Below, piece after piece: positions 1 through 14,613 of a DNA stretch of 64,000 bases. The stretch is from NCBI RefSeq assembly GCF_014269025.2, contig NZ_CP077094.1, positions 2,232,001 to 2,296,000 of the forward strand, read 5' to 3'. This stretch comes from Pseudomonas promysalinigenes (GTDB lineage Bacteria > Pseudomonadota > Gammaproteobacteria > Pseudomonadales > Pseudomonadaceae). Every line of letters starts with the position of its first letter. Positions within the stretch are counted from its first letter, which is position 1. The translations under genes were made by a program, and so were the position numbers. Below the pieces are notes generated by a model. The model was not told the DNA's origin and did not search any database. It saw only the letters and a list, made by a program, of their open reading frames with translations.

Positions 1-143
1 ATCGAATGAGAAAAATAAGCCATTAGCATAATCGCATAGGGAGTTGATGCCATACATCAAGCGCTATCTGATTGAAATGCATATTAGCATATTCCTAAAA
101 TCAATTTAGTTTATCTTGCGGTCTTCGTTAGAGTCCTCAGACC

Positions 144-162
144 GGGCGGCATGATGCCGCCC
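144..162. repeat. GC-rich inverted repeat upstream of the first binding-protein gene
   Basis: A 7-bp perfect stem (GGGCGGC, 144-150, with GCCGCCC, 156-162) and a 5-nt loop lie 22 nt before the start codon at 184. No T tract follows. The preceding 140 bases are AT-rich and hold no gene; they probably carry the promoter. The hairpin could be a 5' UTR structure or an operator. The sequence does not decide which. Confidence 0.4.
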
Positions 163-183
163 GCCCAGGCATCGAGGAACGCC

Positions 184-1150
184 ATGTCCATTCGAACCAA
201 ACTCTTGACCCTTGCCGCGGCCTTGTTGCTGATGGGCCAGGCCAGCGCCACGGAGCGCCTGACCCTGCGCATCGGTGACCAGAAGGGCAACATGCGTGCC
301 CAGCTGGAAGCGGCCGACGCCTTGCGCGATTTGCCCTACGACATCCATTGGGCCGAATTCCCGGCTGCCGCGCCGCTAGCCGAGGCGCTCAATGCCGGGG
401 CAATCGATGCCGGCATCATTGGTGATGCGCCGCTGCTGTTCGTACTGGCGTCGGGAGCACCTGTCAAAGCCATCGCAGTAGACAAGTCCGATCCCTACGG
501 TACTGCGCTGTTGGTTCGGCCTGATGCCCCCCCTGCAAGGTGCAGCAGACCTCAAGGGCAAGCGGATTGCCACCGGGCGAGGTTCGATTGGTCATCACCT
601 AGCGCTCAAGGCCTTGGCCCAGGCCGGCCTTGACGAGAAGGACGTAGAGTTCCGTTTCCTCGGCCCAGTGGATGCCAAGATCGCCCTGGCCAATGGCTCG
701 GTGGATGCCTGGGCGACCTGGGAGCCTTACACGGCGTTGGCCGAGCTCAGTGGACAGGGCAGGGTGCTGGTCAATGGCCGAGGGCTGTCCAGCGGCAACA
801 GCTTTCTAGCTGCAACCGATAAGGCGCTGGACGACCCTGCTCGGCGTGCGGCGCTACAAGACTATCTCAACCGTCTTGCGCAGGCGCAGGTATGGGCTAA
901 CCAGCATCTGGATAGCTACTCCAACACCCTGGCCGCAATCATCGGCTTCCCCAAAGACGCCGCTCGTTTGCAGTTCGAGCGACGCCAGCTGCGCTGGCAA
1001 GTGATCGAGCCACAAACGGTAGCCGTACAGCAAGACACCGCTGATTTTTATCATGCCCACGGCCTGATGACCGAACGCCTGGACGTAGCACCGACCTTCG
1101 CCAATGGTTTCACCGTTCCTGATGCAACCAAACTGGCTGCGCATCCTTGA
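184..1150 (+). pseudogene. SsuA/TauA-like ABC substrate-binding protein, frameshifted at a C7 tract
   Basis: This would be a periplasmic solute-binding protein of the aliphatic sulfonate/taurine/nitrate family, delivering a sulfur or nitrogen compound to an ABC permease. The start ATG 184 has a GAGGA Shine-Dalgarno 5 nt upstream and is followed by a signal peptide ending near ASA-TERLTLRIG. The reading frame runs normally to a run of seven C at 527-533 and then shifts. The correct continuation (LQGAADLKGKRIATGRGS, then the family-typical DAWATWEPY) is in another frame up to the stop at 1150. Removing one C restores a full-length protein of about 321 residues, so this is either a one-base indel in the assembly or a real, possibly reversible, slippage mutation. 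The next gene is a paralogue. No SsuB or SsuC partner is adjacent. Confidence 0.85.
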
Positions 1151-1166
1151 CCCTGGAGATCGCTTC

Positions 1167-2123
1167 ATGCAATTGAAAACTCTACGCCAGCTTACTATCG
1201 CGCTGCTGACCAGCGCTCTGCTGCCAACAATGGCCAGCGCCGATCAGACGTTGCGCATCGGGTACCAGAAGTCTTCGACCCTGCTGACCCTGCTCAAAGC
1301 CCGTGGCAGCCTTGAGCACCGCCTGCAGGCCCAGGGTATTCGGATTAGCTGGCACGAATTCCCCAGCGGGCTACCGCTGTTGGAAGCACTGAACCTGGGC
1401 AACGTCGACCTATCGGCGGATGTGGCTGACACCGTGCCAGTGTTCACCCAGGCGGCAGGCGCCAAGCTGACCTATTTCGCCCGTGAGGCGCCATCGCCTA
1501 CAGCCCAGGCGATTCTGGTGCCGGCGGACTCGCCGCTCAAGACCCTTTCTGACCTAAAAGGCAAACGTGTTGCAGTGACCAAGGCGGCCGGCAGCCACTA
1601 CCTGCTGATCCAGGCTTTGGCCAAGGCCGGGTTGACTTTCAAGGACATCACACCAGCGTACCTGATTCCTGCTGACGGCAGAGCCGCGTTCGAGAATCAC
1701 AAGGTCGATGCCTGGGTGACCTGGGACCCGTACGTGGCCAGTGCCCAGCGCCAGCAGAACGCGCGCATCCTGGCAGATGGCAGCGATCTGGCCAGCTACC
1801 AGCGCTACTACCTGGCCGGTAGCGACTACGCCAAGGCCCATCCCGAGGTGCTGCAGCAGGTCTATCTTGCTTTGCGAGAGGTCGGGGCCTGGACCAAGGC
1901 CAATCCGGTGGAGGCGGCCCGTATCCTAGGCCCGTTGTGGGGCAACCTCGATAGCTCCACGGTCCAGCAAGCCAATGCACGGCGCAGTTATGACGTGCAG
2001 CCTGTGAAGGTGGAGAACCTGGCCGAACAGCAGCGCATTGCCGATGCATTCTATCGCGAGGGGCTGCTGCCAAAAGCAGTGGATGCCAGCTCGGTGAGCC
2101 TTTATGAACCGGCGCAGAACTAG
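1167..2123 (+). CDS. SsuA-like ABC transporter substrate-binding protein
   Basis: This is a 318-residue periplasmic binding protein of the sulfonate/taurine family. The start at ATG 1167 is supported by CTGGAG (1153-1158) and by a signal peptide whose cleavage falls after TMASA. The family core is visible: LRIGYQKSS at the mature N terminus, a domain resembling DLKGKRVAVTKAAGSHYLL near residue 125, and DAWVTWDPY near residue 185. It follows the broken paralogue by 16 nt, so the two probably share a transcript. No ATPase or permease of the SsuBC type is next to it, so it may be an orphan serving a distant transporter. The family assignment is firm. The substrate, likely an organosulfur compound given the neighbours, is inference. 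Confidence 0.9.
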   Translation: MQLKTLRQLTIALLTSALLPTMASADQTLRIGYQKSSTLLTLLKARGSLEHRLQAQGIRISWHEFPSGLPLLEALNLGNVDLSADVADTVPVFTQAAGAKLTYFAREAPSPTAQAILVPADSPLKTLSDLKGKRVAVTKAAGSHYLLIQALAKAGLTFKDITPAYLIPADGRAAFENHKVDAWVTWDPYVASAQRQQNARILADGSDLASYQRYYLAGSDYAKAHPEVLQQVYLALREVGAWTKANPVEAARILGPLWGNLDSSTVQQANARRSYDVQPVKVENLAEQQRIADAFYREGLLPKAVDASSVSLYEPAQN

Positions 2124-2578
2124 CTATACGAGCAAAGCGTTGGGGTGCTCGCAGTGCCCCAGCAAAGTCGTCTGTTCGCAGTAATTGGTTGTTGATGATG
2201 TCGAGGATAAGGGGCTCTGGGTAATCGTGCGTTGCTGCTCAAGCAGGCCGGAAGAAATCACATAGACGTTGTCGAGCTGCGGCTCTTCTTGCTCGGCGCC
2301 ATGGCCGCAGAGTTGCGGCAGCGACAGGCAGGCACTGATTGCTCACTAGGCAGCACGGTTTGCAGGGGTTTGCAGAGCTTAAGGTAATTCCAAAAAGGTA
2401 TTTGTTCACCCTTTTTAAGATCGATTAGCTTTATGCCTTGAGAGGCTGTCGCGCCAGGCGTGCAGCGTTTTTAGGCGCCAGGCTTACAGAATTTTGTTTC
2501 CAGCCTGCGCTCAGCCAATTTTTCTACTCTGGTGCGGGCAAGTTGTGCGCATGCCAGGGTTGCTCGCCCGGAGCTCCA
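2124..2578. other. Intergenic region; possible small gene remnant and promoter
   Basis: No credible gene is seen in these 455 bases. On the minus strand one frame stays open from about 2342 to 2123. It reads like the tail of a signal peptide followed by EEPQLDNVYVISSG, which recalls the N terminus of a TonB-dependent receptor, but it has no start codon and ends within 50 further codons. It may be a decayed fragment or chance. The last 200 bases are AT-rich (for example around 2385-2435) and probably carry the promoter of the transporter gene that follows. Confidence 0.3.
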
Positions 2579-2587
2579 GTGACAGTC

Positions 2588-4675
2588 ATGCAAACTTCTT
2601 CGGCCACCTTATCGATCGACTCATCTCAGAGACTTGCGCAGTCCTTAAGCAATTATGCGAATAAAGGTGAGGTCGTGCTTGAACTGCGCAATTTGACCAA
2701 GGCCTATGACAGCAAAAATGCGTCGGCGCTGCCGGCGGTTAGCGACTTCAGCTTGAAAGTGCTGCGCGGCGAAGTCCTGTGCCTGATGGGAACATCGGGA
2801 AGCGGCAAGTCCACATTGTTGCGGCACGTCAACCGGCTGATCGAGCCTTCCAGTGGTGAAATCCTGATCGATGGTCAGGCCATTAGCGGCTTGGGCCCCA
2901 AAGCCTTACGTGATTTGAGATCGCGCCGCATCGGCATGGTATTTCAACATTTTGGGTTGTTGCCTCACCGCACCGTGCTGGATAACGTCGCGTTACCCCT
3001 TGAATTGCGTGGCGAGCCTGAGTCAAGTCGTCATGCAGCAGCTATGGTGCAGCTGCAGGCAGTCGGTCTGGAAGGTTGGGCAGAGCATTATCCACATGAG
3101 CTGTCAGGCGGTATGCAGCAACGGATCGGTTTCGCACGGGCGCTGGTAATTGACCCGGACATCCTTTTGATGGATGAGCCATTCAGTGCTTTGGATCCGA
3201 CCATCCGTCGCGATCTTCAGAACCATTTCCTGGCGCTTGCACGCGAGCGCGGTATCACCACTTTACTGGTCACCCACGACCCTGCTGAAGCCATTCGTCT
3301 TGCCGACCGGATTGCCGTGCTGCGCCGAGGCGAGTTGGTCCAATTGGGCACGCCTCACGACATGCTCGAGCATCCGGCTGATGCTGGGGTAGCGGATTTT
3401 TTCCAGGACTGCGCTACCAAGCCTGGACCTACGCGAAGTGTCGCAGATCTAGTCAACGAAACGCCCCAGAGCATGCCCTCAGTGCCGCATCAGCGCCCGG
3501 GGTTGCGCGCTTGGCAATCCTTGTTACTGGGCCCAGCCGCGCTGGCTGCGCACGGCCAAGGTGGGAGGTTCTGGCTAGGCTTTGCAACAGAGCTTGCGGC
3601 TATGGCGACACTGGTAAAAGGAATTGTCACGTCGTCATGGCTGGCGGCTTTGTTCGCAATCGTCATTTTGGGAAGCAGCCGCTTCATGGCGGTTTGGCTT
3701 GGCACCCAACCCAGGCGGCAACCAAAAGCGGGTTGGGGGCTGCCATTGGCGGTGCTCGTGGCTAGTCAGGCATTGGTGATTTTGCGCATGGTGACACCAG
3801 ATGCATCTGGCGTTTTGTTTGAGTTCCCTGCTGACCGCCAGATCTTGCTGCTAGTAGCCCAAAGCATCGATCAGTTCATCAGCTGGTCGCAACTGACATT
3901 TGAAGGCGCATTCGTCGGCATCATTTTTGCGGTGCGAACTGTCATCGAAGGCATTGAGAATGTCCTTTCTTGGTTACCATGGCCTGTTCCGGCTCTGGCT
4001 TTGATGCTTTTGGCGTGGCGTTCAGCCAGCTTGGGGTTGGTACTCACCAGTGGCGCGGCACTGCTCTACATTGGCGTGTTCGGGTTCTGGGAGCGAACCA
4101 TCGCCACGCTGGCACTGGTCGGATCATCGGTGCTGATCGCCCTGGTCTTAGGCGTCCCGATGGGCATCCTGCTGGCGAAGCGTCCTCTCGTAAGGCGGTT
4201 GGTCACGCCGCTGCTAGACGTTATGCAAACCCTGCCCACCTTTGTCTATTTGATCCCGGCCGTTGCGTTCTTCTCTGTGGGTAAGACACCCGCCGTGATT
4301 GCTACGGTGATATTTGCCTTGGCGCCTATGATTCGCCTGACGTCCCTGGGTATTCAGGAAGTCCCCAAAGATGCCGTCGAGGCTGCCCGAGCTCATGGCG
4401 CTAGCCCCTGGCAAACCCTGATCAAGGTGCAGTTGCCGCTGGCCCGTCGCTCATTGTTGTTGGGGATCAACCAAACACTGGTCATGAGCCTGTCGATGGT
4501 TGTCGTGGCGGCCCTGATCGGTGCAGGCGGGCTGGGTTACGACGTGATGACGGCTCTGCGCAATATCAAGGGGGGAGAAGGGGTGCTCGCCGGAGTGGCG
4601 ATTGTACTGTGCGCACTTGTCCCTGATCGAATCATTCAATCCAGCTTGAACAAGCAAGCTCATCTGCATACCTGA
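2588..4675 (+). CDS. Fused ATPase-permease of a glycine betaine/proline-type ABC transporter (ProV-ProW fusion)
   Basis: This 695-residue protein combines two subunits that are usually separate. Residues about 30-275 are a ProV-like ATPase: Walker A GTSGSGKST (68-76), signature LSGGMQQR (172-179), Walker B DILLMDEP (191-198) and the switch His at 230. The CBS domains often found after ProV are missing. Residues about 350-690 are a ProW-like permease with several membrane helices, the EAA loop (EAARAHGASPW, from 598) and a C-terminal DR motif. The start is ATG 2588, with GTG 2579 in frame and better spaced from GGAG (2570-2573). The binding-protein gene follows after 5 nt. The substrate is likely a quaternary amine or sulfonium such as glycine betaine, DMSP or S-methylmethionine; the methyltransferase downstream favours a methylated sulfonium. 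Confidence 0.88.
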   Translation: MQTSSATLSIDSSQRLAQSLSNYANKGEVVLELRNLTKAYDSKNASALPAVSDFSLKVLRGEVLCLMGTSGSGKSTLLRHVNRLIEPSSGEILIDGQAISGLGPKALRDLRSRRIGMVFQHFGLLPHRTVLDNVALPLELRGEPESSRHAAAMVQLQAVGLEGWAEHYPHELSGGMQQRIGFARALVIDPDILLMDEPFSALDPTIRRDLQNHFLALARERGITTLLVTHDPAEAIRLADRIAVLRRGELVQLGTPHDMLEHPADAGVADFFQDCATKPGPTRSVADLVNETPQSMPSVPHQRPGLRAWQSLLLGPAALAAHGQGGRFWLGFATELAAMATLVKGIVTSSWLAALFAIVILGSSRFMAVWLGTQPRRQPKAGWGLPLAVLVASQALVILRMVTPDASGVLFEFPADRQILLLVAQSIDQFISWSQLTFEGAFVGIIFAVRTVIEGIENVLSWLPWPVPALALMLLAWRSASLGLVLTSGAALLYIGVFGFWERTIATLALVGSSVLIALVLGVPMGILLAKRPLVRRLVTPLLDVMQTLPTFVYLIPAVAFFSVGKTPAVIATVIFALAPMIRLTSLGIQEVPKDAVEAARAHGASPWQTLIKVQLPLARRSLLLGINQTLVMSLSMVVVAALIGAGGLGYDVMTALRNIKGGEGVLAGVAIVLCALVPDRIIQSSLNKQAHLHT

Positions 4676-4680
4676 TAATA

Positions 4681-5742
4681 GTGAGATTTAAAGTGAAGAC
4701 ACACCTCTTGCGCAAACTAGTGCACGCGGTAACGGTGACCGCCCTGATCATTCCAGCAACCGTGCTTGCCAAAGAAAAAATTGTCATCGGCGAGCAGAAC
4801 TGGACAGGCGCCATCGCCATTCAACATATCCTTGGAAACATCATTCAAAATCGGCTCGATGGCGATGTGTCGTATTTGGCGGGTGATGTTCCGGTACTCT
4901 TTAGTGCCGCGGCGAAAGGTGATGGCACCGTTGATGTGCTGACCGACATCTGGCTGCCCAATCAGTCTGCCGCCTGGGCCAAGTATGTTACAGGGGGTAC
5001 CCGCTCACTGATACCGAACACTCACCCTTATGCTGGCGAGCAAGGGTTCTACATTCCTGGGTATTTGCAGGACAAATACGGAGTCAAATCAATCTACGAT
5101 CTCCAAAAACCGGAAGTGGCGAAGTTGTTCGAGCCACTGGGCGGTGGTAAGGCACAACTGCTGGTTGGACCGGCAGGTTGGGAATCGACCTACATTGGCC
5201 AGATCAAGGCTAAGGATTACGGCTTTGCCGACAAGTTTGAGTCTGTGTCGACCGAAGCATCGGTGACCTATGCAAAACTGGCCGCAGCTTATAAAGCGCA
5301 ACGTGGTGTGGTGTTTTATGCGTATACCCCGGACTGGATCTTCTCGGCGTTTGATCTGCGTCGTCTCGAAGAGCCGGCATTTGATGGCTACGCCCAGGAC
5401 AACAAGAAAGATGACCCGCTCTACAAGGCCGACGGCTGCTGGAAGTTCATAAGCCCAACCGTGGACCCGGATTGGCTCAACAAAAGTCAGATCACCTGCG
5501 CGTTCCCCGATGCCAAGGTCCATATTCTGGCGTCTTCAGCATTAGGCAAGCGTGCACCGAGAATCGCTGAGTTTCTGCGCAATGTTGCCATCGAGCCTGC
5601 GCAGCTCAATGAGCTGATCCTGAAAATAGAAAAGGAGAAAATACCGGCTGATGAGGCCGCTCAGGCTTGGATCAAAGCCAATGGCGCCACGGTTGATCAA
5701 TGGTTGGCAGCCTCGGCCCCCCTGGTGAGTAAAGCGCAATGA
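4681..5742 (+). CDS. ProX/OpuAC-family substrate-binding protein
   Basis: This is a periplasmic binding protein of about 353 residues for quaternary ammonium or sulfonium compounds. A signal peptide (VTVTALIIPATVLA) precedes the mature start KEKIVIGEQNW. Conserved tryptophans that could form the aromatic cage are visible (GEQNW, DIWLPNQSAAW, GPAGWES, PDWI). Two GTG codons, 4681 and 4693, can serve as start, and neither has a strong Shine-Dalgarno. The gene lies 5 nt after the ATPase-permease fusion and overlaps the next gene by ATGA (5739-5742), so it is translationally coupled to the methyltransferase. Base composition in this stretch looks lower in GC than the flanking DNA-repair genes, which hints at horizontal origin. 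Family firm, ligand unknown. Confidence 0.88.
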   Translation: MRFKVKTHLLRKLVHAVTVTALIIPATVLAKEKIVIGEQNWTGAIAIQHILGNIIQNRLDGDVSYLAGDVPVLFSAAAKGDGTVDVLTDIWLPNQSAAWAKYVTGGTRSLIPNTHPYAGEQGFYIPGYLQDKYGVKSIYDLQKPEVAKLFEPLGGGKAQLLVGPAGWESTYIGQIKAKDYGFADKFESVSTEASVTYAKLAAAYKAQRGVVFYAYTPDWIFSAFDLRRLEEPAFDGYAQDNKKDDPLYKADGCWKFISPTVDPDWLNKSQITCAFPDAKVHILASSALGKRAPRIAEFLRNVAIEPAQLNELILKIEKEKIPADEAAQAWIKANGATVDQWLAASAPLVSKAQ

Positions 5743-6656
5743 GTACCTCAATTTTGCGCTTGCTGGACGGCGGCATGGGTCGAGAGCTAAAGCGTATCGG
5801 AGCGCCATTCCGTCAGCCTGAGTGGTCTGCACTTGCCCTGATCGAAGCGCCCAGTTTCGTGTTAAAGGCACATAGCGCATTCATCGAGGCCGGTGCTCGC
5901 ATCATCACCACAAACAGCTATGCGGTTGTTCCCTTTCACATCGGTGATGAGCGCTTTGAGCGAGAGGGACGAACGCTGGCCGACCGTGCTGGGCAGTTGG
6001 CTCGACAAGCCGCTTCGAGCAGTAGTGAACACGTTACCGTAGCGGGTTCGCTCCCACCCGCGTTGGGGTCCTATCGGCCCGACCTGTTCGATCATCACCG
6101 ATCAATCGCCATCCATAGGGAGCTCATTGACGGATTGAGTGCGTATGTCGATGTCTGGCTTGCTGAAACCCAAAGCTCGATCGCCGAGCTACAGGCAGTC
6201 GCTCAGGCGCTCGTTGCAGACGCCAGACCTCTGTGGGTGTCGTTCACGCTCATCGACGAGGCTGGGGCGCCGCCAAGATTGCGCTCGCATGAACCCGTCA
6301 TTGATGCGGTCAGGGTGGCCGCCGAGCTAGGGGCTAAAGCGGTGCTGTTCAATTGCAGCCAGCCGGAAGTCATGGCGCAAGCGCTTGCTGAGGCTCGAAA
6401 GGCCATTGCGCAGTCTGGCCAGTGCATTGAGCTGGGGGTTTACGCAAACGCGTTTCCACCGGTTAGCGCAGAGGCCGAGGCCAACAGCACCTTGCTGGAG
6501 GTGCGTCGCGATCTGGGCCCGGAGTCCTATCTGGGGTGGGCCAGATCTTGGGTCGCTGCCGGCGCCAGCATCATTGGTGGTTGCTGCGGCATTGGCCCGG
6601 AGCACATCGAACATCTGCACCTGCACTTGATCGGTAACGAAGGGGTTGAGCCATGA
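5739..6656 (+). CDS. mmuM: Homocysteine S-methyltransferase (MmuM-like)
   Basis: This 305-residue cytosolic enzyme should transfer a methyl group from S-methylmethionine, or a similar sulfonium or betaine donor, to homocysteine, giving methionine. The TIM-barrel start LLDGGMGRELKR is visible. The zinc thiolates are Cys206 (NCSQPE) and Cys282-Cys283 (GGCCGIGPEHI). Length agrees with E. coli MmuM. It overlaps the binding-protein gene upstream and msrA downstream, each by ATGA, so transport and methyl transfer are coupled. In E. coli the same enzyme sits next to an S-methylmethionine permease; here an ABC importer takes that position. Donor identity is inferred from context. Confidence 0.88.
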   Translation: MSTSILRLLDGGMGRELKRIGAPFRQPEWSALALIEAPSFVLKAHSAFIEAGARIITTNSYAVVPFHIGDERFEREGRTLADRAGQLARQAASSSSEHVTVAGSLPPALGSYRPDLFDHHRSIAIHRELIDGLSAYVDVWLAETQSSIAELQAVAQALVADARPLWVSFTLIDEAGAPPRLRSHEPVIDAVRVAAELGAKAVLFNCSQPEVMAQALAEARKAIAQSGQCIELGVYANAFPPVSAEAEANSTLLEVRRDLGPESYLGWARSWVAAGASIIGGCCGIGPEHIEHLHLHLIGNEGVEP

Positions 6657-7120
6657 CAGATATCGAAGCTGGGTTAGAAATTGAGCAGGCCACTTTTGGT
6701 GCCGGTTGCTTCTGGGGCGCAGAAGCAGCCTTCAGGGCATTGCCAGGCGTGGTAGATAGTCGCGTGGGTTTTGTGCAACTAACCGCGGCCGAGACTGAGT
6801 CGATCGAAGTTGTCCAGGTAGACTTCAATACAACAGTCCTCTCCTATGATCAGCTGATCGAACATTTCTGGACACTTCACGATCCGACGTCCATTGACCG
6901 CCAAGGTGCAGATGTCGGGGTCAAATATCGTTCTGCAGTGTTTTATCACTCTATGCAGCAGGCTGCTGTGGCACGGGAGGCCAAACAGCAGGTGCAAGCC
7001 TCAGGCCACTTCGACAAACCGGTTGTGACCGTCATCCTTCCACTGGGTGACTTTCAGCTCGCGCATGATGATCAGCAGCAGTATCTGGAGAAACACGGCT
7101 CAAGCAGCTGTTCAATTTGA
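6653..7120 (+). CDS. msrA: Peptide methionine sulfoxide reductase MsrA
   Basis: This 155-residue enzyme reduces methionine-S-sulfoxide, free or in proteins, to methionine. The family signature GCFWG is present with catalytic Cys19, and a resolving cysteine candidate is at the C terminus (SSSCSI). It is shorter than housekeeping Pseudomonas MsrA proteins (about 210-220 residues). It overlaps the methyltransferase gene by ATGA, so it is the last gene of a four-gene unit of importer ATPase-permease, binding protein, methyltransferase and reductase. Its likely role is salvage of oxidised methionine or of a related sulfoxide in the same sulfur pathway. Confidence 0.9.
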   Translation: MTDIEAGLEIEQATFGAGCFWGAEAAFRALPGVVDSRVGFVQLTAAETESIEVVQVDFNTTVLSYDQLIEHFWTLHDPTSIDRQGADVGVKYRSAVFYHSMQQAAVAREAKQQVQASGHFDKPVVTVILPLGDFQLAHDDQQQYLEKHGSSSCSI

Positions 7121-7180
7121 ATGGCGCCACCGACTTGAGTGACTGAATCTTCTCACGGCTTCTTGCAGATGAACTTGCAG

Positions 7181-7201
7181 GTCATCTACTGCGTAGATGA
7201 C
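7181..7201. repeat. Perfect 9-bp inverted repeat between msrA and the monooxygenase gene
   Basis: The arms GTCATCTAC (7181-7189) and GTAGATGAC (7193-7201) are separated by three bases. No T tract follows. It sits 61 nt after the msrA stop and 120 nt before the monooxygenase start, so it may be a weak terminator or a regulator-binding palindrome. Confidence 0.5.
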
Positions 7202-7320
7202 TCGAGCTCGTCAAGCCGCAGCACTTAACAGTAAGCCGATGCTGATTTACCTCGGCAAGGATCCCGTCGCCTCTAGCATCGAGATGCTATGCATCGCCCT
7301 AAACATTTAAAGGAACAGTG

Positions 7321-8703
7321 ATGTCTGACCCTAAACCCCTTATGTTTGCGCTGTACGAACAGGCCAGTGTCGGTTGCGGTGGGGCGCCGAGTTTGTGGAC
7401 GCACCCGGCAGATGAACGCTTGGCTGCGAACACCTTCGAGTTTTGGGCTAACCAGGCACGCATTGCTGACCAGGCTAACCTCGATATGTTGTTCTTCGCA
7501 GACGTGTTGGGCTTCTATGACGTATTCGGCGCTAATGCGCAGGCAGCCGTGGAGTGGGCTGTCGAGGCGCCTGCAAATGACCCGCTGATGATCATCCCGG
7601 GCTTGGCAGCGATTACCAAGAACCTAGCGTTCGGCGCTACCGTGTCCACCACCTACGAGCATCCTTTTGCCCATGCCCGTCGTTTCAGCACGCTCGATCA
7701 CATGACTAACGGCCGGGTGGGTTGGAACATTGTCACCTCCTATCTTTCCAGTGCTGCGCGTAACTTCGGTCTGGAAGAAATGCTCAAGCATGCAGATCGA
7801 TACGAGCGCGCCGAGGAGTTCATGGATGTGGTGTACAAACTTTGGGAGGGCAGTTGGGCAGACGACGCAGTGGTCGCCGATAAAACCCGCCGTGTGTACG
7901 CGCAAGGCGGTCGGGTCAAACCGATCGACCATGCAGGAGAGCGCTACCGCGTGGCAGGGCCTCATTTGTCCGCTCCGTCGCCACAGCGAACGCCATTGCT
8001 GATTCAAGCGGGCTGGTCTGGAAGAGGGCGCGAGTTCGCCGCCAAACATGCCGAGCTGATCTTCATAGCCAAGTCCAATCCACATGAAATCCGCCAAGGC
8101 TTGGAAGAGATCTGGACGATGGCTGAGGCACGTGGCCGTGCTAGGGATGACGTGCAGTCGCTAACAGTGCTGCGCATCGTGACGGCGAAAACCGAGATTG
8201 AAGCCCAGCGCAAGTACGACGAGCTCCAGAGCAACTATCACTTGGAGGCACAACTGGTCAGCTATGCAGGTGACACAGGCATCGACCTGAGCCGCTATGC
8301 GGACAGCGATGCCTTGTCGACTCATACTGAAGGTCTTACGTCCTACATGATGCGACCCGATGGAAGCGGGAGGCCTTTAACCGCCGGTGACATCAAGAAG
8401 CGCTTCGCCAACGTTACACGGGGCACCGATCTTATCTTGGTGGGCACTGCGCAGCAGGTGGCGGACAGCATCGAGGAGCATGCACGGATCTCCGGTACCA
8501 GTGGTTACATGCTTAACCCCTTAACGAGCCCTGGCACATTGGAGGATTTTGTGGAATTGGTCGTGCCGGAGCTGCAAAAAAGAGGGCTTTATCGAACCAG
8601 CCCTCAGAGCGGGAGTTTGCGTTCGAGGCTCAGAGCTGATGGATCCAGTCGTCTACCAGAGTCCGCCTACGGAGCCTCTTACCGCTTCCCGGCCTCCAAC
8701 TGA
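7321..8703 (+). CDS. FMN-dependent monooxygenase of the NtaA/SnaA/DszA/DmoA family
   Basis: This 460-residue protein is a luciferase-like monooxygenase that uses reduced FMN from a separate reductase. Members include nitrilotriacetate monooxygenase NtaA, dibenzothiophene-sulfone monooxygenase DszA and dimethylsulfide monooxygenase DmoA. Family landmarks are SLWTHP near the N terminus, LDMLFFADVLGFYD, STTYEHPFAHARRFSTLDHMTNGRVGWNIVTS (split here only as a landmark around residues 100-130) and a final NPLTSPGTLEDF segment. ATG 7321 is preferred over the adjacent GTG 7318 because AAAGGA (7309-7314) is 6 nt away. No flavin reductase gene is next to it. With the upstream genes it suggests oxidative C-S bond cleavage, perhaps of a dimethylsulfide-like product. 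Substrate not decided. Confidence 0.88.
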   Translation: MSDPKPLMFALYEQASVGCGGAPSLWTHPADERLAANTFEFWANQARIADQANLDMLFFADVLGFYDVFGANAQAAVEWAVEAPANDPLMIIPGLAAITKNLAFGATVSTTYEHPFAHARRFSTLDHMTNGRVGWNIVTSYLSSAARNFGLEEMLKHADRYERAEEFMDVVYKLWEGSWADDAVVADKTRRVYAQGGRVKPIDHAGERYRVAGPHLSAPSPQRTPLLIQAGWSGRGREFAAKHAELIFIAKSNPHEIRQGLEEIWTMAEARGRARDDVQSLTVLRIVTAKTEIEAQRKYDELQSNYHLEAQLVSYAGDTGIDLSRYADSDALSTHTEGLTSYMMRPDGSGRPLTAGDIKKRFANVTRGTDLILVGTAQQVADSIEEHARISGTSGYMLNPLTSPGTLEDFVELVVPELQKRGLYRTSPQSGSLRSRLRADGSSRLPESAYGASYRFPASN

Positions 8704-8844
8704 TCTTGCGTTCGCCATGCCGACTCATCCGCATCGCTGTGGAGCATTCACCCTAAACGATGGTTCAGAAAGGTGCGGTGAGGGGGCATTTGTAGGGCTT
8801 TGAATCTTGATCTGTGTCGAGAAAGAATAAGGTGACGAAGAGGT

Positions 8845-8866
8845 CTTTTCAGCGTTCGCTGAAAAG
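8845..8866. repeat. Perfect 22-bp palindrome upstream of lexA2
   Basis: CTTTTCAGCG (8845-8854) and CGCTGAAAAG (8857-8866) flank two T bases, forming a perfect 10-bp stem. It ends one base before the LexA2 box. No T tract follows on either strand, so an operator or a promoter-region structure is more likely than a terminator. Confidence 0.6.
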
Positions 8867-8867
8867 A

Positions 8868-8879
8868 GTACAAATGTGC
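8868..8879 (+). promoter_or_regulatory. LexA2 operator (GTAC-N4-GTGC)
   Basis: The sequence GTACAAATGTGC matches the box described for the second LexA protein of Pseudomonas putida, GTAC-N4-GTGC, and differs from the usual CTGT-N8-ACAG SOS box. It lies 3 nt before ATG 8883 and covers an in-frame ATG at 8874, which favours 8883 as the start. Repression of the lexA2-imuA-imuB-dnaE2 operon by its own LexA2 is the expected function. Confidence 0.85.
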
Positions 8880-8882
8880 TCC

Positions 8883-9491
8883 ATGGACAATCTCACCCCA
8901 AAACGCCGTGCAATCCTCGAATACATCCGCGAGCGCATTGCCGACCACAGTCAACCACCAAGCCTGGCCGATATCGCCAGCCGCTTTGGTTTCGCCTCGC
9001 GCAGCGTGGCCCGCAAGCACATCACTGCGCTGTGCCAGGCCGGCTATATCGATGTCACGCCCAACCAGGCACGGGGCATTCGCCTGGCTGAGCCGCTTCG
9101 CCGGCCTGAACTCCTTGAGCTTCCAGTACTGGGTCAGGTGGCCGCTGGTGCGCCCATCGGCCCGGACCTGGGCATCCATGAGCAATTGCTTCTCGACCCC
9201 AGCCTGTTTCGTCGCACCCCAGACTACCTGCTCAAGGTGCGCGGCGATTCGATGATCGGCGATGGCATTTTCGATGGCGATTTGGTCGGCATCCTTCAGC
9301 AGAGTGAAGCACGTGATGGCCAGATCGTGGTCGCCCGTCTGGACGGCGAGGTCACCATCAAGCGGCTGCAGCGCCAACCCGGTGGTTATCGGCTGTTACC
9401 GCGCAACCCGGCGTACGCGCCGATTGACGTAGGCCCAGAGCGCGAATTCTTCATCGAAGGCGTGTTCTGTGGCCTGTTGAGGCGCGACTGA
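8883..9491 (+). CDS. lexA2: LexA2, SOS repressor of the imuA-imuB-dnaE2 cassette
   Basis: This 202-residue autocleaving repressor has an N-terminal winged-helix DNA-binding domain (LTPKRRAILEYIRER, then the recognition segment ASRSVARKHI) and a C-terminal S24 peptidase domain. The cleavage site is Ala88-Gly89 (VAAGAP), the nucleophile Ser123 (GDSM) and the base Lys160. The recognition helix differs from standard LexA (where SPNAAEEHLK is usual), consistent with the divergent operator just upstream. The start at ATG 8883 (MDNLTPK) is chosen over ATG 8874 because the latter lies inside the operator. It overlaps imuA by one base, so it heads the operon and is derepressed on RecA-stimulated cleavage after DNA damage. 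Confidence 0.93.
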   Translation: MDNLTPKRRAILEYIRERIADHSQPPSLADIASRFGFASRSVARKHITALCQAGYIDVTPNQARGIRLAEPLRRPELLELPVLGQVAAGAPIGPDLGIHEQLLLDPSLFRRTPDYLLKVRGDSMIGDGIFDGDLVGILQQSEARDGQIVVARLDGEVTIKRLQRQPGGYRLLPRNPAYAPIDVGPEREFFIEGVFCGLLRRD

Positions 9492-10111
9492 TGGGCGCGG
9501 TGGTCGATCTTGATCGGCTGCTCGATCAACGCCAGATCTGGCGGGGGCGCCAGGGCCAGGTACGCCCGGCAGGGCTGCAGCCTACCGGGCACGCAGCGCT
9601 CGACCAGCACTTGCCAGATGGCGGCTGGCCTGCGGCGGCCCTCAGTGAGCTGCTGCTGGCCAGCCCAGGGTGTGGCGAGTTGCAGCTGCTTTGGCCATCG
9701 CTGGCACGCCTGACCGCACAAGGCGGCCGGGTAGTGCTGATAGCTCCGCCGTTCATCCCCTATGCCCCCGCTTGGCAGGCCGCAGGTGTGGACCTGCGCT
9801 GGTTGATCCAGGTCCAAGCCCCCCAGGCCGATGTGCTTTGGGCAGCTGAACAATGCTTGCGCTCGGCCAGCTGCGCCGCTGTGCTGTGCTGGCCGGAGCG
9901 TGCCGATGACCGTGCCTTGCGGCGTTTGCAGGTGGCCGCCGAAACCGGGCAGGCGCTGGCCTTCGCCTGTCGCCCACAACAGGCTGCGAACAACCCGTCA
10001 CCGGCGGCGCTGCGTATAGCCGTTGATACGCGGCCGGCGCAATGGCGCGTACTCAAGTGCCGTGGCGGTATGCCGCCGGCCCTGCCAATCGCCTGTCCTG
10101 GGCGAGGCTGA
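9491..10111 (+). CDS. imuA: ImuA, translesion-synthesis accessory protein
   Basis: This 206-residue protein is the RecA/SulA-like partner of ImuB and DnaE2 in damage-induced mutagenesis. Its N terminus (LDQRQIWRGRQ) and the segment LDQHLPDGGWPAAALSELL match the ImuA pattern, in which the ATP-binding loop is degenerate. It overlaps the lexA2 stop codon by one base and ends 6 nt before imuB. Position and order identify it more strongly than any single motif. It would bind RecA or ImuB rather than carry enzymatic activity. Confidence 0.88.
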   Translation: MGAVVDLDRLLDQRQIWRGRQGQVRPAGLQPTGHAALDQHLPDGGWPAAALSELLLASPGCGELQLLWPSLARLTAQGGRVVLIAPPFIPYAPAWQAAGVDLRWLIQVQAPQADVLWAAEQCLRSASCAAVLCWPERADDRALRRLQVAAETGQALAFACRPQQAANNPSPAALRIAVDTRPAQWRVLKCRGGMPPALPIACPGRG

Positions 10112-10117
10112 TGTTGC

Positions 10118-11536
10118 ATGCTCTGGGCCTGTATCCTCTTGCCCCAGCTGGCGCTGGACTCGATCCTGCGCGAGCGTGACGATCCCGATACCCCACTGGT
10201 GCTAATCGGCGGCCCTGCCCAGCGTCGCGTGTTGCAAGCTGTGAACCCAGCAGCGGCGGCGCTTGGCTTGCGCGCGGGGCTGACACTGACGGCAGCACGG
10301 GCCTTGGCCGATGGTTTTCACTGCGTCGAGGCCGACCCGGCGCGTATCGATCACCTGCAGCAGTTGCTGGCAGCCTGGGCTTACCGGTTCAGTGCCCACG
10401 TCAGTCTTCACTATCCGCGCGCCTTGTTGCTTGAGGTCGGCTCCAGCCTGCAGTTGTTCGGCCCCTGGCCTGAATTCCAGGCCCGCCTGCGTGAAGAGCT
10501 CGCTGAATTGGGTTTGCGCCAGCGCATCGTCCTTGCTACCAACCCGGTCGCCGCACGCATGCTCGCCAACGGCCATGACGGCCTGGCCCTGACCTGCGCT
10601 GAGCAGACCCGAACGGCGCTTGCGCGAATGCCTGTCGAGCGGGTCGGGTTACCAGCAGACGCTGCCCAAGCCTTTGTTCGCATGGGCCTGCGCCAGTTGG
10701 GGCAGGTTCTGGAATTGCCCCGTGATGCGTTGGCCCGGCGTTTTTCTGCCCAGGTCCAGTTGCATCTTGACCAACTGCTTGGCCTGCGTACCTTCGGGCT
10801 GGATTTCTACCAGCCACCAGATCGCTTCGAGTCACGTCTAGAGCTCAACTTCGATGTCGAATCGCACCAGGCCCTGCTGTTCCCGTTACGGCGCATGTTG
10901 AATGACCTGGGGGTTTTTCTTGCTGGGCGCGATTGCGGTGTTCAGCGGTTCTATCTGTATCTGGAGCATGCCCAAGGCGCGGATACACAACTGCACGTGG
11001 GCTTGCTGGCCGCAGAGCGTGACCCTGCCATGCTCTTGGAACTGGCGCGCGGTCGTTTGGAAGCGCTGCGCATTCGCGCACCTGTACGCAACCTGCGCCT
11101 GGTCGCAGATGATCTGCCGGCCTTCGTGCCCCAGCACCAGGCGCTGTTCGACCCACGGGCCCAGCAGGCCCAGCCTTGGGAGCAACTGCGCGAACGCTTG
11201 CGTGCGCGGTTAGGGGACGACGCCGTCAAGGGGTTGCGTGCAGGGGCCGACCATCGCCCGGAATGTGCCTGGCAGTTGGCCGAACAAGGTGCTCAGGGAG
11301 GCCTGCCAGCCTTGCCCGGAAGCCGCCCCGGCTGGTTACTGCCCATACCCCAGGCGTTGGATGCGACACAACACACCGTGCTCGGGCAAGCAGAGCGCAT
11401 CGAGTCGGGCTGGTGGGATGGTGGTGATGTACGCCGCGACTATTACCGCATCGAAACCTGTGATGGCCTGCGTGGTTGGGCCTATCAAGACCTCGCTCAG
11501 CCTGGCCCGCTGTGGCTGCAGGGCTGGTTCGCATGA
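10118..11536 (+). CDS. imuB: ImuB, inactive Y-family polymerase-like protein
   Basis: This 472-residue member of the DinB/UmuC superfamily acts as a bridging protein for the DnaE2 polymerase. The Y-family fold can be followed from [14 protein letters not shown], but the metal-binding acidic residue expected near the N terminus is replaced (ILLPQLAL), as is usual for ImuB, so it should be catalytically inactive. No clear beta-clamp binding motif of the QLPLF type was found in it. The start is ATG 10118, 6 nt after the imuA stop, and the stop overlaps dnaE2 by ATGA. Expression follows LexA2. Confidence 0.92.
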
Positions 11537-14500
11537 ACACGTGCGGTTACGCCGAGCTGCATTGCCTGTCCAATTTCAGCTTTCAGCGCGGGGCATCCAG
11601 TGCCGAGGAGTTATTCGTCCGCGCCCGCGAGCAGGGCTACCAAGCCCTGGCGATCACTGACGAATGCACCTTGGCAGGTATCGTGCGTGCCTGGCAGGCT
11701 GCCAAGGCGCAGCAGCTGCGCTTGATCGTCGGTAGCGAAATGCGTTTGCAGGACGGCCCCAAACTGGTTTTGCTGGTGCAGGACCTGGCCGGCTATCAAA
11801 ACCTCTGCGCCCTGATCACGCGCGCTCGGCGGCGGGCCGAGAAGGGTGATTATCAACTGTTCGCCGATGACCTTCGGCAACATCACACAGGCTTGCTGGC
11901 GCTGTGGGTAGCCGACGATCCTGATGATCAGGCGACTGGCCACTGGCTACGCGAGCTGTTTGCCGAGCGCCTGTGGCTGGCTGTTCACTTGCATCGCGCC
12001 AGTGATGACGAGTTGCGCCTGGCCCGTTTGCGAGTTCTGGCAGCGCAGCTTGGCATTCGGGCGGTGGCCTGCGGTGACGTGCATATGCATGTGCGCGGCC
12101 GGCGTGCGCTTCAGGATTGCATGACCGCCATCGGCCAGCACTGCACCGTGGCCGAGGCGGGCCGCCATCTGTTCGCCAATGGTGAGCGCCACCTGCGGCC
12201 AATAGCGCAACTGGCAGCGCTTTACCCAGCAGATTTGCTGGCCGAGACCCTGCTCATTGCCGAGCGTTGCCAGTTCGACCTGGCGCAATTGCGCTATCAG
12301 TACCCGCGCGAACTGGTACCCGAGGGGCACACACCTGCCAGTTGGCTGCGCCAGCTGTGCGAGCGTGGCTTGCCACAGCGTTGGCCAACCGGGCCAAGCA
12401 GCAAGGTACGGGCGGTGCTGGACAAAGAGTTGGCGCTGATCCAGGAACTGGGCTACGAGAGCTATTTTCTCACCGTGCACGACATCGTCGCCTTTGCCCG
12501 CAGCCAGCACATCCTATGCCAAGGCCGGGGCTCTGCGGCCAATTCGGTGGTGTGTTTCGTGCTGGGCATCACTGAGCTGGACCCGATGGAGCATCGCTTG
12601 CTGTTCGAGCGTTTCCTGTCACGCGAGCGCAATGAACCGCCCGATATCGACGTGGACTTCGAGCACGACCGGCGCGAAGAGGTGATCCAATATGTGTTTC
12701 GCCGCTATGGCCGCCATCGCGCTGCACTCACCGCAGTGGTCAACACCTACCACGCAGCCGGTGCCGTGCGCGATGTCGCCAGGGTGTTGGGCCTGCCGGC
12801 CGATCAGGTCGATGCCTTGGCCAAATGCTGCGGTCGCTGGAGCGACCGTATTCCTGACTCGCAGCGTCTGGCCGAGGCCGGTTTCGAACCGGGCAGCCCT
12901 TCGCTGCGGCGCATTCTGGTTCTGGCCGGTGAGCTGATCGGTTTCCCTCGTCATTTGTCTCAGCACCCCGGGGGGTTCGTCATCTCCGAGCAGCCGCTGG
13001 ACCACTTGGTGCCGGTAGAAAACGCCGCCATGGCCGAGCGTACGGTGATCCAGTGGGATAAAGACGACCTGGACATGGTCGGCCTGCTGAAGGTCGATGT
13101 GTTGGCCCTGGGCATGCTTAGCGCTTTGCGCCGCTGCTTTGACCTGGTGCAACGCCATCGTGGTCGGCAACTGACCCTGGCGACGATCCCCAGCGAAGAC
13201 CCCGCAACCTACGCGATGATCAGCCGTGCCGAAACCATGGGTGTGTTCCAGATCGAATCACGGGCACAGATGGCCATGTTGCCCAGGCTCAAACCCAGCA
13301 CGTTCTATGACCTGGTGATCGAAGTCGCCATCGTGCGCCCCGGGCCGATCCAGGGTGATATGGTTCACCCTTACTTGCGCCGGCGTTTGAAGCAGGAGCC
13401 GGTGACCTACCCCTCGCAGAAGCTCAAGGAAGTATTCGCCCGTACTCTCGGCGTGCCGCTGTTTCAGGAGCAGGTCATGGAGCTGGCCATGGTCGCGGCC
13501 GACTATACCCCGGGTGAGGCCGACCAGCTGCGCCGCAGCATGGCAGCCTGGAAGCGCCATGGTGGGCTGGAGCCCCACCGTCAGCGGCTGGTCGAAGGCA
13601 TGCTGCGCAACGGTTACGACGTGGCATTCGCCGAACGTATATTCGAGCAGATCAAGGGGTTTGGCAGCTACGGTTTCCCCGAGTCCCACGCCGCCAGCTT
13701 TGCCTTGTTGTGCTACGCCAGCAGTTGGCTCAAATGCCATGAACCGGCGATCTTCACCTGCGCACTGATCAACAGCTGGCCCATGGGCTTCTACAGCCCG
13801 GACCAGTTGCTGCAGGAGGCTCGGCGGCAGGGTATCGAGGTGCGTCCAGTGGATGTGTTCCATAGCCAATGGGACTGCACCCTGGAGCCTGATGGCCAAG
13901 GCATCTTGGCCCTGCGCCTGGGCCTGCGCCAGGTGCGTGGCTTCAATGAAGTGGATGCTCGCCGCTTGGAGCAGGCGAGGGCGCAGCGCCCTTGGCGTGA
14001 TATCGAAGACCTGTGCCTGCGTGCAGGGCTGGACAGCCGTGCACGTGCCCGGCTTGCCGATGCCGGGGCTCTGCGTGCACTGGCGCGGGACCGGCACCAG
14101 GCGCGCTGGCAAGTCGCGGCAGTGCAGCCACAGTTGCCGCTGTTCGCCGAGGTTCAGGCGTTGCCGGAGGCCGAGGTGATGTTGCCAGCGCCTACTGTGG
14201 GTGAAGACCTGGTTGCCGACTACGACACCCTGGGCACAACCCTTGGCCCGCACCCGCTCAGGCTATTGCGTCCACGCTTGCGGGCGCTGGGCTGCCGCAG
14301 CTCTGCTGAACTCGCCGGGCTGGAACATGGCGATGCGATAGCCGTCACCGGCCTGGTTGTAGGGCGCCAACGGCCCCAGACTGCCAGTGGTGTGACCTTC
14401 GTGACACTCGAAGATGAGTTCGGCATGGTCAATGTGGTGGTGTGGCGGGACCTGGCCGAACGGCAGCGGCGGGCGTTGGTGGGGGCCCAGTTGCTTAAGG

Positions 14501-14613
14501 TCAGCGGGCGCCTCGAGCAGGAAAATGGCGTGCGCCATCTGATTGCCCGGCGCCTTGAAGACATCAGCCCTTTGCTAAAAGGGCTGGATGTGAAAAGCCG
14601 AGATTTTCACTGA
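11533..14613 (+). CDS. dnaE2: Error-prone DNA polymerase III alpha subunit DnaE2
   Basis: This 1026-residue C-family polymerase performs mutagenic translesion synthesis with ImuA and ImuB. The N-terminal PHP domain (residues about 1-230) begins [12 protein letters not shown]. The catalytic aspartates are in [14 protein letters not shown] near residue 370, with helix-hairpin-helix and OB-fold regions at the end ([18 protein letters not shown]). A canonical beta-clamp motif, QLPLF, is at residues 867-871. ATG 11533 overlaps the imuB stop. The length is about 100 residues shorter than replicative DnaE, as expected for DnaE2. It is the last gene of the LexA2 operon and converges with the next gene over 13 nt. 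Confidence 0.95.

What the first reader, a model, noticed from the sequence alone, without database searches (positions are those of the whole stretch)
184..8703. Compact organosulfur/onium module: ABC importer plus homocysteine methyltransferase, MsrA and a C-S type monooxygenase
Seen: sulfonate-type binding proteins, a betaine-type importer, a homocysteine S-methyltransferase coupled by ATGA overlap to the importer binding protein, MsrA coupled to it, and a DszA/DmoA-like monooxygenase. Known: MmuM-type enzymes use S-methylmethionine, and in E. coli they sit beside an amino acid permease, not an ABC importer. Inference: this could be an ABC-driven route for methylated sulfonium compounds (S-methylmethionine, DMSP) into methionine, with oxidation of a leftover sulfide by the monooxygenase. 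This arrangement is not one I recall.
Basis: partly seen in the sequence, partly recalled or inferred. Interest (0 to 1): 0.7.

Follow-up and report, generated by a model that had tools for sequence, protein, structure and literature searches.

The report
Sulfur-starvation importer for methylated sulfur compounds
A Pseudomonas carries what looks like a sulfur-starvation operon that imports a methylated sulfur compound through an unusual one-chain pump and turns it into methionine; the same kind of pump sits beside other methyl-sulfur enzymes in unrelated bacteria, but its cargo has not been tested.

Summary
The genes are real, with corrections: the first SsuA-like gene is frameshifted, "ProV" and "ProW" are one fused ATPase-permease, and the monooxygenase is not part of the recurring module.

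The fused pump with its ProX-type binding protein is a rare, distinct clade (7 of 119 sampled Pseudomonas genomes; 36 named loci, 4 outside Pseudomonas). After ProX come a homocysteine methyltransferase in 23 of 36 loci and full-length MsrA in 24 of 36; in Pleomorphomonas, instead, methylthio-alkane reductase (marHDK). Twelve distant ProX loci show neither fusion nor these enzymes.

A promoter element upstream of the operon has one other match in the genome, before tauABCD. In nine other Pseudomonas genomes it gives 17 sites: 9 before tauA, 7 before this pump or its SsuA2 gene, 1 before another importer operon. This places the operon with sulfur scavenging rather than osmoprotection. ProX keeps the aromatic onium cage of the DMSP-binding DmpX but not its carboxylate contacts.

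Best reading: sulfur-starvation uptake of a methylated sulfonium or sulfoxide, S-methylmethionine being the leading, unproven ligand. New variant of a known kind.

The parts
151..1150 (+). SsuA1, SsuA-family binding protein gene, frameshifted (ORFs 151-633 and 524-1150)
   Evidence: (TIGR01728 matches split 1-94 and 96-288)
1164..2123 (+). SsuA2, SsuA-family binding protein (TIGR01728 201.4 bits, over cut-off 163.5); an orthologue lies directly upstream of the fused pump in 7 of 36 relatives
2384..2428 (+). 45-bp bipartite promoter element shared with tauABCD (tau element)
2579..4675 (+). Fused ProV-ProW: N-terminal ABC ATPase and C-terminal permease in one chain, 698 aa; start inferred as GTG 2579 (ATG 2588 possible)
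4681..5742 (+). ProX-type (OpuAC, PF04069) binding protein, 353 aa; model mean pLDDT 91.6; cage residues W41, W91, W167, Y215 and Y213
5739..6656 (+). Homocysteine S-methyltransferase (PF02574), 305 aa; Cys206, Cys282, Cys283 in the FNC and GGCC motifs (zinc-site role recalled for the family); ATGA overlap with ProX
6653..7120 (+). MsrA, 155 aa, GCFWG motif with Cys19; ATGA overlap with the methyltransferase
7318..8703 (+). NtaA/DmoA-family flavin monooxygenase; best PDB sequence matches alkane monooxygenase 3b9n (LadA) then dimethyl-sulfide monooxygenase 6ak1; accessory, not part of the recurring module

Best explanation
This is a sulfur-starvation operon. ProX captures a methylated, onium-like sulfur compound in the periplasm. 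A homodimer of the fused ATPase-permease pumps it in. Dedicated cytoplasmic enzymes then make it usable: the homocysteine methyltransferase moves a methyl from a sulfonium onto homocysteine to give methionine, and MsrA reduces a methylsulfinyl (sulfoxide) form. The leading ligand for the Pseudomonas version is S-methylmethionine, perhaps together with methionine sulfoxide, so that the operon salvages methylated and oxidised methionine. Shown here: gene content, fusion, operon structure, recurrence, the promoter element shared with tauABCD and the conserved aromatic cage. Inferred: transport, the homodimer, the ligand, catalysis, sulfate control and CysB as regulator. The confidence is for the compound class; for S-methylmethionine alone I would give about 0.35.
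For: Promoter: a 21-mer taken from the pump promoters of the window and its relatives hits the own genome twice at up to 3 mismatches, here and before tauABCD; the reversed control hits 0 times. TauA, TauB and TauD each pass an NCBIfam cut-off. A 45-mer, refined with the own tau site, gives 17 sites in 8 of 9 other Pseudomonas genomes: 9 before tauA (one a 57% TauA homologue), 6 before the fused-pump operon, 1 before SsuA2 alone, 1 before a 2OG-oxygenase and MetQ-like gene; controls 0.

Association: in 36 named loci, HMT 23, full-length MsrA 24, marHDK 1; 35 of 36 have at least one intact and the 36th (L121) an msrA relic. Control: 0 of 12 distant ProX loci.

Pleomorphomonas MarK scores 832.9 bits to 9d9u/9fmg, the latter given as the methylthio-alkane reductase structure in PMC12552129.

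Pocket: DmpX Trp35, Trp84, Trp152 and Tyr200 correspond to W41, W91, W167 and Y213, and Trp202 to Y215 (DmpX residues from passages of PMC10030565). In a corrected tree three HMTs beside the amino-acid importer (L073-L075) nest inside the ProX-linked HMT clade (support 0.895, sister to ProX-linked L112 at 0.875), which would suit a ligand that is both an amino acid and an onium.
Confidence: 0.65

Rival explanations
1. The pump is primarily a sulfoxide importer (methionine sulfoxide, DMSO or another methylsulfinyl compound), with MsrA as the core enzyme; the methyltransferase is a later Pseudomonas addition.
For: MsrA follows ProX in lineages outside Pseudomonas without HMT (L119, L120, relic in L121) and is full-length in 9 of 9 named Pseudomonas loci that lack HMT. 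MarHDK, which stands there in Pleomorphomonas, acts on methyl sulfides (passages of PMC12552129), the products of such a reduction.
Against: MsrA is absent or a relic in 10 of 23 loci that have HMT, so there it is dispensable. The aromatic cage fits a cationic onium at least as well.
Confidence: 0.2
2. The ligand is DMSP or a close relative (dimethylsulfonioacetate, DMSOP), the methyltransferase giving methionine plus methylthiopropionate.
Against: The DmpX carboxylate contacts Thr64 and Ala153 are replaced by D69 or V70 (alignment-dependent) and E168, acid or hydrophobic groups where a carboxylate should bind. No DMSP lyase or demethylase is among the genes I named, but I ran no search for them.
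Confidence: 0.12
3. An osmoprotectant (glycine betaine or choline) importer of the ordinary ProU kind, the methyltransferase working as a betaine-homocysteine methyltransferase.
For: Family names and fold are ProU/OpuA; betaine-type aromatic cage.
Against: Promoter element shared with tauABCD; MsrA and marHDK partners; BHMT model 71.4 bits against a 338 cut-off; no CBS domain reported by Pfam.
Confidence: 0.08
4. The first reader's full pathway, in which the DmoA-like monooxygenase oxidises the leftover sulfide.
For: The monooxygenase is of a fitting family and adjacent; it also follows the cluster in L087 and L116.
Against: It accompanies the cluster in only 2 of 36 relatives, starts 197 bp after MsrA, and its nearest PDB sequence match is the alkane monooxygenase 3b9n before the dimethyl-sulfide monooxygenase.
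Confidence: 0.1

Closest known systems
DmpXWV, DMSP importer of marine bacteria (PMC10030565; passages seen)
   Same: PF04069 binding protein with an aromatic cage and the sulfonium-contact Tyr; methyl-sulfur cargo (shown there, proposed here)
   Different: Fused ATPase-permease; carboxylate-binding residues not kept; promoter element shared with tauABCD; companion HMT/MsrA; 19% identity over the structural alignment
ProU/OpuA glycine betaine importers
   Same: Fold of ProX, ATPase and permease families
   Different: ProV and ProW fused, no CBS domain reported, tau-type promoter element, methyl-sulfur gene partners
E. coli mmuP-mmuM (S-methylmethionine permease and methyltransferase)
   Same: Importer plus homocysteine methyltransferase in adjacent genes
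   Different: Amino-acid-permease type (PMC3228920, passages) instead of ABC pump; HMT only 32% identical; no MsrA in the stretch fetched
MHT1/dppABCD clusters of enterobacteria (PMC3228920; passages seen)
   Same: Homocysteine methyltransferase beside an ABC importer
   Different: Dipeptide-type importer, MetJ regulation; no MsrA mentioned in the passages seen
tauABCD
   Same: Same promoter element in the same genome
   Different: Taurine importer and dioxygenase; unrelated cargo
marBHDK methylthio-alkane reductase (PMC12552129; passages seen)
   Same: marHDK lies directly downstream of the same fused pump and ProX in Pleomorphomonas
   Different: Not seen in or near the window; the passages seen mention no such importer

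Membership tests
ProU/OpuA-type onium ABC importer | PF04069 binding protein | tested here: met
   184.2 bits, cut-off 21.2
ProU/OpuA-type onium ABC importer | ATPase and permease of the ProV/ProW families | tested here: met
   PF00005 and PF00528 over cut-off; best NCBIfam rows are proV, ChoV-type and ChoW-type, all below their own cut-offs
ProU/OpuA-type onium ABC importer | Separate ATPase and permease chains, ATPase with CBS domains (recalled for E. coli ProV) | tested here: not met
   Single fused ORF in 35 of 36 relatives, the 36th contig starting at ProX; no CBS family reported by Pfam
DmpX (DMSP-binding protein) | Cage and sulfonium contacts Trp35, Trp84, Trp152, Tyr200 | tested here: met
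   W41, W91, W167, Y213; 28, 26, 28 and 28 of the 28 rows of at least 58% identity
DmpX (DMSP-binding protein) | Thr64 and Ala153 (carboxylate), Glu113 and Trp202 | tested here: not met
   D69 or V70 depending on the aligner; E168 (21 of 28); Q121 (28 of 28); Y215 (28 of 28)
MmuM S-methylmethionine:homocysteine methyltransferase | PF02574 match and the cysteine motifs | tested here: met
   203.2 bits; FNC206SQ and GGC282C283G
MmuM S-methylmethionine:homocysteine methyltransferase | NCBIfam equivalog NF007020 | tested here: not met
   118.3 bits, cut-off 215
MmuM S-methylmethionine:homocysteine methyltransferase | Uses S-methylmethionine | not testable with these tools
   needs an assay
Betaine-homocysteine methyltransferase | NCBIfam equivalog NF005718 | tested here: not met
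   71.4 bits, cut-off 338
MsrA | TIGR00401 and GCFWG motif | tested here: met
   140.1 over 108.1; Cys19
NtaA/DmoA-family monooxygenase | TIGR03860 | tested here: met
   479.9 over 279.7; substrate unknown
tau-type sulfur-starvation regulon | Shares the promoter element of tauABCD | tested here: met
tau-type sulfur-starvation regulon | Induced by sulfate limitation through CysB | not testable with these tools
   regulator not identified; needs expression data

The most novel reading that the evidence does not exclude
A distinct family of one-chain (ATPase fused to permease) importers has specialised in methylated sulfonium and sulfoxide compounds. It acts as a general front end that delivers non-volatile methyl-sulfur cargo to whatever enzyme the host owns: homocysteine methyltransferase in Pseudomonas, MsrA in other lineages, and the nitrogenase-like methylthio-alkane reductase in Pleomorphomonas. 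The Pseudomonas version would be an ABC importer for S-methylmethionine as a sulfur source.
Probability: 0.3. Interest if true: 0.75.

Novelty: new variant of a known kind. Interest (0 to 1): 0.58.

Why it matters
Plants and algae release methylated sulfur compounds (recalled), and how soil bacteria take them up for sulfur is, to my knowledge, poorly known. The promoter element shared with tauABCD and the recurring companion genes make the cargo directly testable with one binding protein. The link to methylthio-alkane reductase would suggest how cells could feed an enzyme that releases methane, ethane and ethylene (passages of PMC12552129). The fused ATPase-permease is, as far as I recall, an unusual architecture for this importer type and worth structural study.

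Tried and rejected
MetR sites (TGAAN5TTCA) and sigma-54 promoters: none in 450 bp upstream of the pump in 37 stretches (two of them, L072 and L106, are the same record, and where SsuA2 leads the operon this is not the operon's own promoter). Rfam over window 1-12000: nothing at gathering score. Plasmid collection: among the 20 records listed of at least 5000 the matches to the pump were separate ATPase and permease pieces; ProX at E 1e-40 matched 13 records, best 35% identity. The idea that the fusion is an assembly artefact was rejected: single ORF in 35 of 36 relatives, and 46 of 47 proteins found with the linker region carry both domains. The ergothioneine amidohydrolase gene near the L121 locus was considered as a ligand hint and set aside, because a separate ProW-like permease piece and, by eye, an ATPase piece lie beside it. 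Fold search could not separate betaine, choline, TMAO and DMSP binders. Ten literature searches in the held open library listed no title or abstract start describing this fused pump or operon; subscription papers and supplements were not searched. Row L086 in the tree was translated on the wrong strand; the tree was rebuilt with the right strand, and that one is used. HMT loci: 20 of 62 rows were fetched (5 ProX-linked, 15 others). The distant-ProX control covers 12 of the 47 distinct distant places listed. Of the 98 ProX relatives, 50 were aligned with the window's. My note says 14 of 14 for the amino-acid-importer HMT loci; the recount is 15 of 15.
Full report
WHAT IS THERE. The window lies in a one-contig genome of 5.05 Mb. 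Family searches confirm each named gene class. The first SsuA-like gene is split across two frames. The ATPase and permease are one chain of 698 residues if the GTG at 2579 is the start; the usual ATPase motifs are present and hydrophobic segments follow from residue 345 on. ProX and HMT, and HMT and MsrA, overlap by ATGA. The sulfur-related region continues upstream of the window.

RECURRENCE. In 119 Pseudomonas genomes, own included, the full-length fused pump was found in 7 (which scored nine candidates a genome); 5 of these have the HMT directly after ProX. A scan of named genomes with an alignment of seven ProX sequences gave 36 loci, 32 Pseudomonas and 4 others. A single fused ORF is present in 35 of 36; the 36th contig begins at ProX. 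A protein search with the linker region found 47 proteins, 46 with both domains. After ProX come HMT in 23 of 36, full-length MsrA in 24 of 36 and partial msrA remains in 4. MsrA is full-length in 9 of 9 Pseudomonas loci without HMT and in 13 of 23 with HMT. The monooxygenase recurs in 2 of 36. The clade is rare: among 398 genomes of the phylum the own genome scores 754 bits and the other five positive genomes at most 204; in 297 genomes of the Pleomorphomonas order Pleomorphomonas scores 528 and the next 331.

CONTROL. Twelve more distant ProX loci were mapped, 8 of them from the Pleomorphomonas order. Ten have separate ATPase and permease genes and two have no such pair nearby; none encodes HMT, MsrA or MarK in the stretch held. 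One stretch is only 7.4 kb, two come from one genus and two from one genome, and 35 further distant places listed were not fetched, so the control is modest.

A SECOND PARTNER ENZYME. In Pleomorphomonas carboxyditropha the order is fused pump, ProX, MarH, MarD, MarK on one strand. MarK scores 832.9 bits to the solved methylthio-alkane reductase, far above the next entry at 72.8. That enzyme makes methanethiol from methyl sulfides (passages of PMC12552129). A second mar copy lies elsewhere in that genome with no pump or ProX match in the 18 kb held.

REGULATION. Upstream DNA of the relatives shares a bipartite element: 28 of 32 named Pseudomonas loci have it at up to 6 mismatches per half (L103 only the second half); of the four misses one has no upstream DNA. 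None of the four non-Pseudomonas loci has it. A 21-mer taken from the pump promoters, not from tau, hits the own genome twice: here and before tauABCD (genes named). The 45-bp version, shaped by the pump promoters and the own tau site, again finds only these two, which is therefore no independent test. It was then run on nine other genomes: 17 sites in 8 genomes, 9 before tauA (one a 57% TauA homologue), 6 before the pump operon (one with SsuA2 leading it), 1 before SsuA2 alone, 1 before a 2OG-oxygenase gene and a MetQ-like gene; reversed-pattern controls were 0. The pump hits there are partly circular; that the remaining sites fall before sulfur-type uptake operons is not. The ninth genome has none. 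Taurine transport proteins rise in sulfur-starved P. aeruginosa (passages of PMC12581299). CysB as the regulator is an inference.

METHYLTRANSFERASE. It is 32% identical to E. coli MmuM and 62% to the second HMT of the same genome, which sits beside an amino-acid-type ABC importer. In the corrected tree of 28 sequences, three HMTs beside that importer type (L073 to L075) nest inside the ProX-linked clade (support 0.895; sister to L112 at 0.875), so the enzyme seems to have moved between importer types.

VERDICT. The specific ligand is open; the methyltransferase as constant partner and the monooxygenase step are not borne out.

Noticed in passing
L118:5908-13198 (Pleomorphomonas carboxyditropha, NZ_NQVN01000002.1): Fused pump and ProX directly upstream of marHDK, the nitrogenase-like methylthio-alkane reductase; a second mar copy elsewhere in the genome (L176) has no pump within the 18 kb held.
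   Followed up: partly
L087:1864-5482 and L196: The tau-type promoter element also precedes a 2OG-Fe(II) oxygenase gene followed by a MetQ-like gene (in L087 also importer ATPase and permease genes, named by eye), a further candidate sulfur-scavenging operon.
   Followed up: partly
L005:9989-12628 and L073-L086: The other Pseudomonas homocysteine methyltransferase type is divergent from an amino-acid-type ABC binding protein and permease, a second candidate ABC route for S-methylmethionine.
   Followed up: partly
window 151-1150: SsuA1 is split over two reading frames in this genome; real mutation or sequencing error not distinguished.
   Followed up: no
L121:14536-15954 (Pseudogemmobacter hezensis): Ergothioneine-utilisation amidohydrolase (ErtD model, 744.9 bits) lies about 5.5 kb from the ProX gene of the fused-pump locus.
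   Followed up: no
window 8814-14613: Downstream genes look like a LexA-like, ImuA, ImuB and DnaE2 mutagenesis cassette; named from sequence by eye, not searched.
   Followed up: no
L107, L109-L111, L113-L115: SsuA2 lies between the tau element and the fused pump, so one pump may serve two binding proteins.
   Followed up: no
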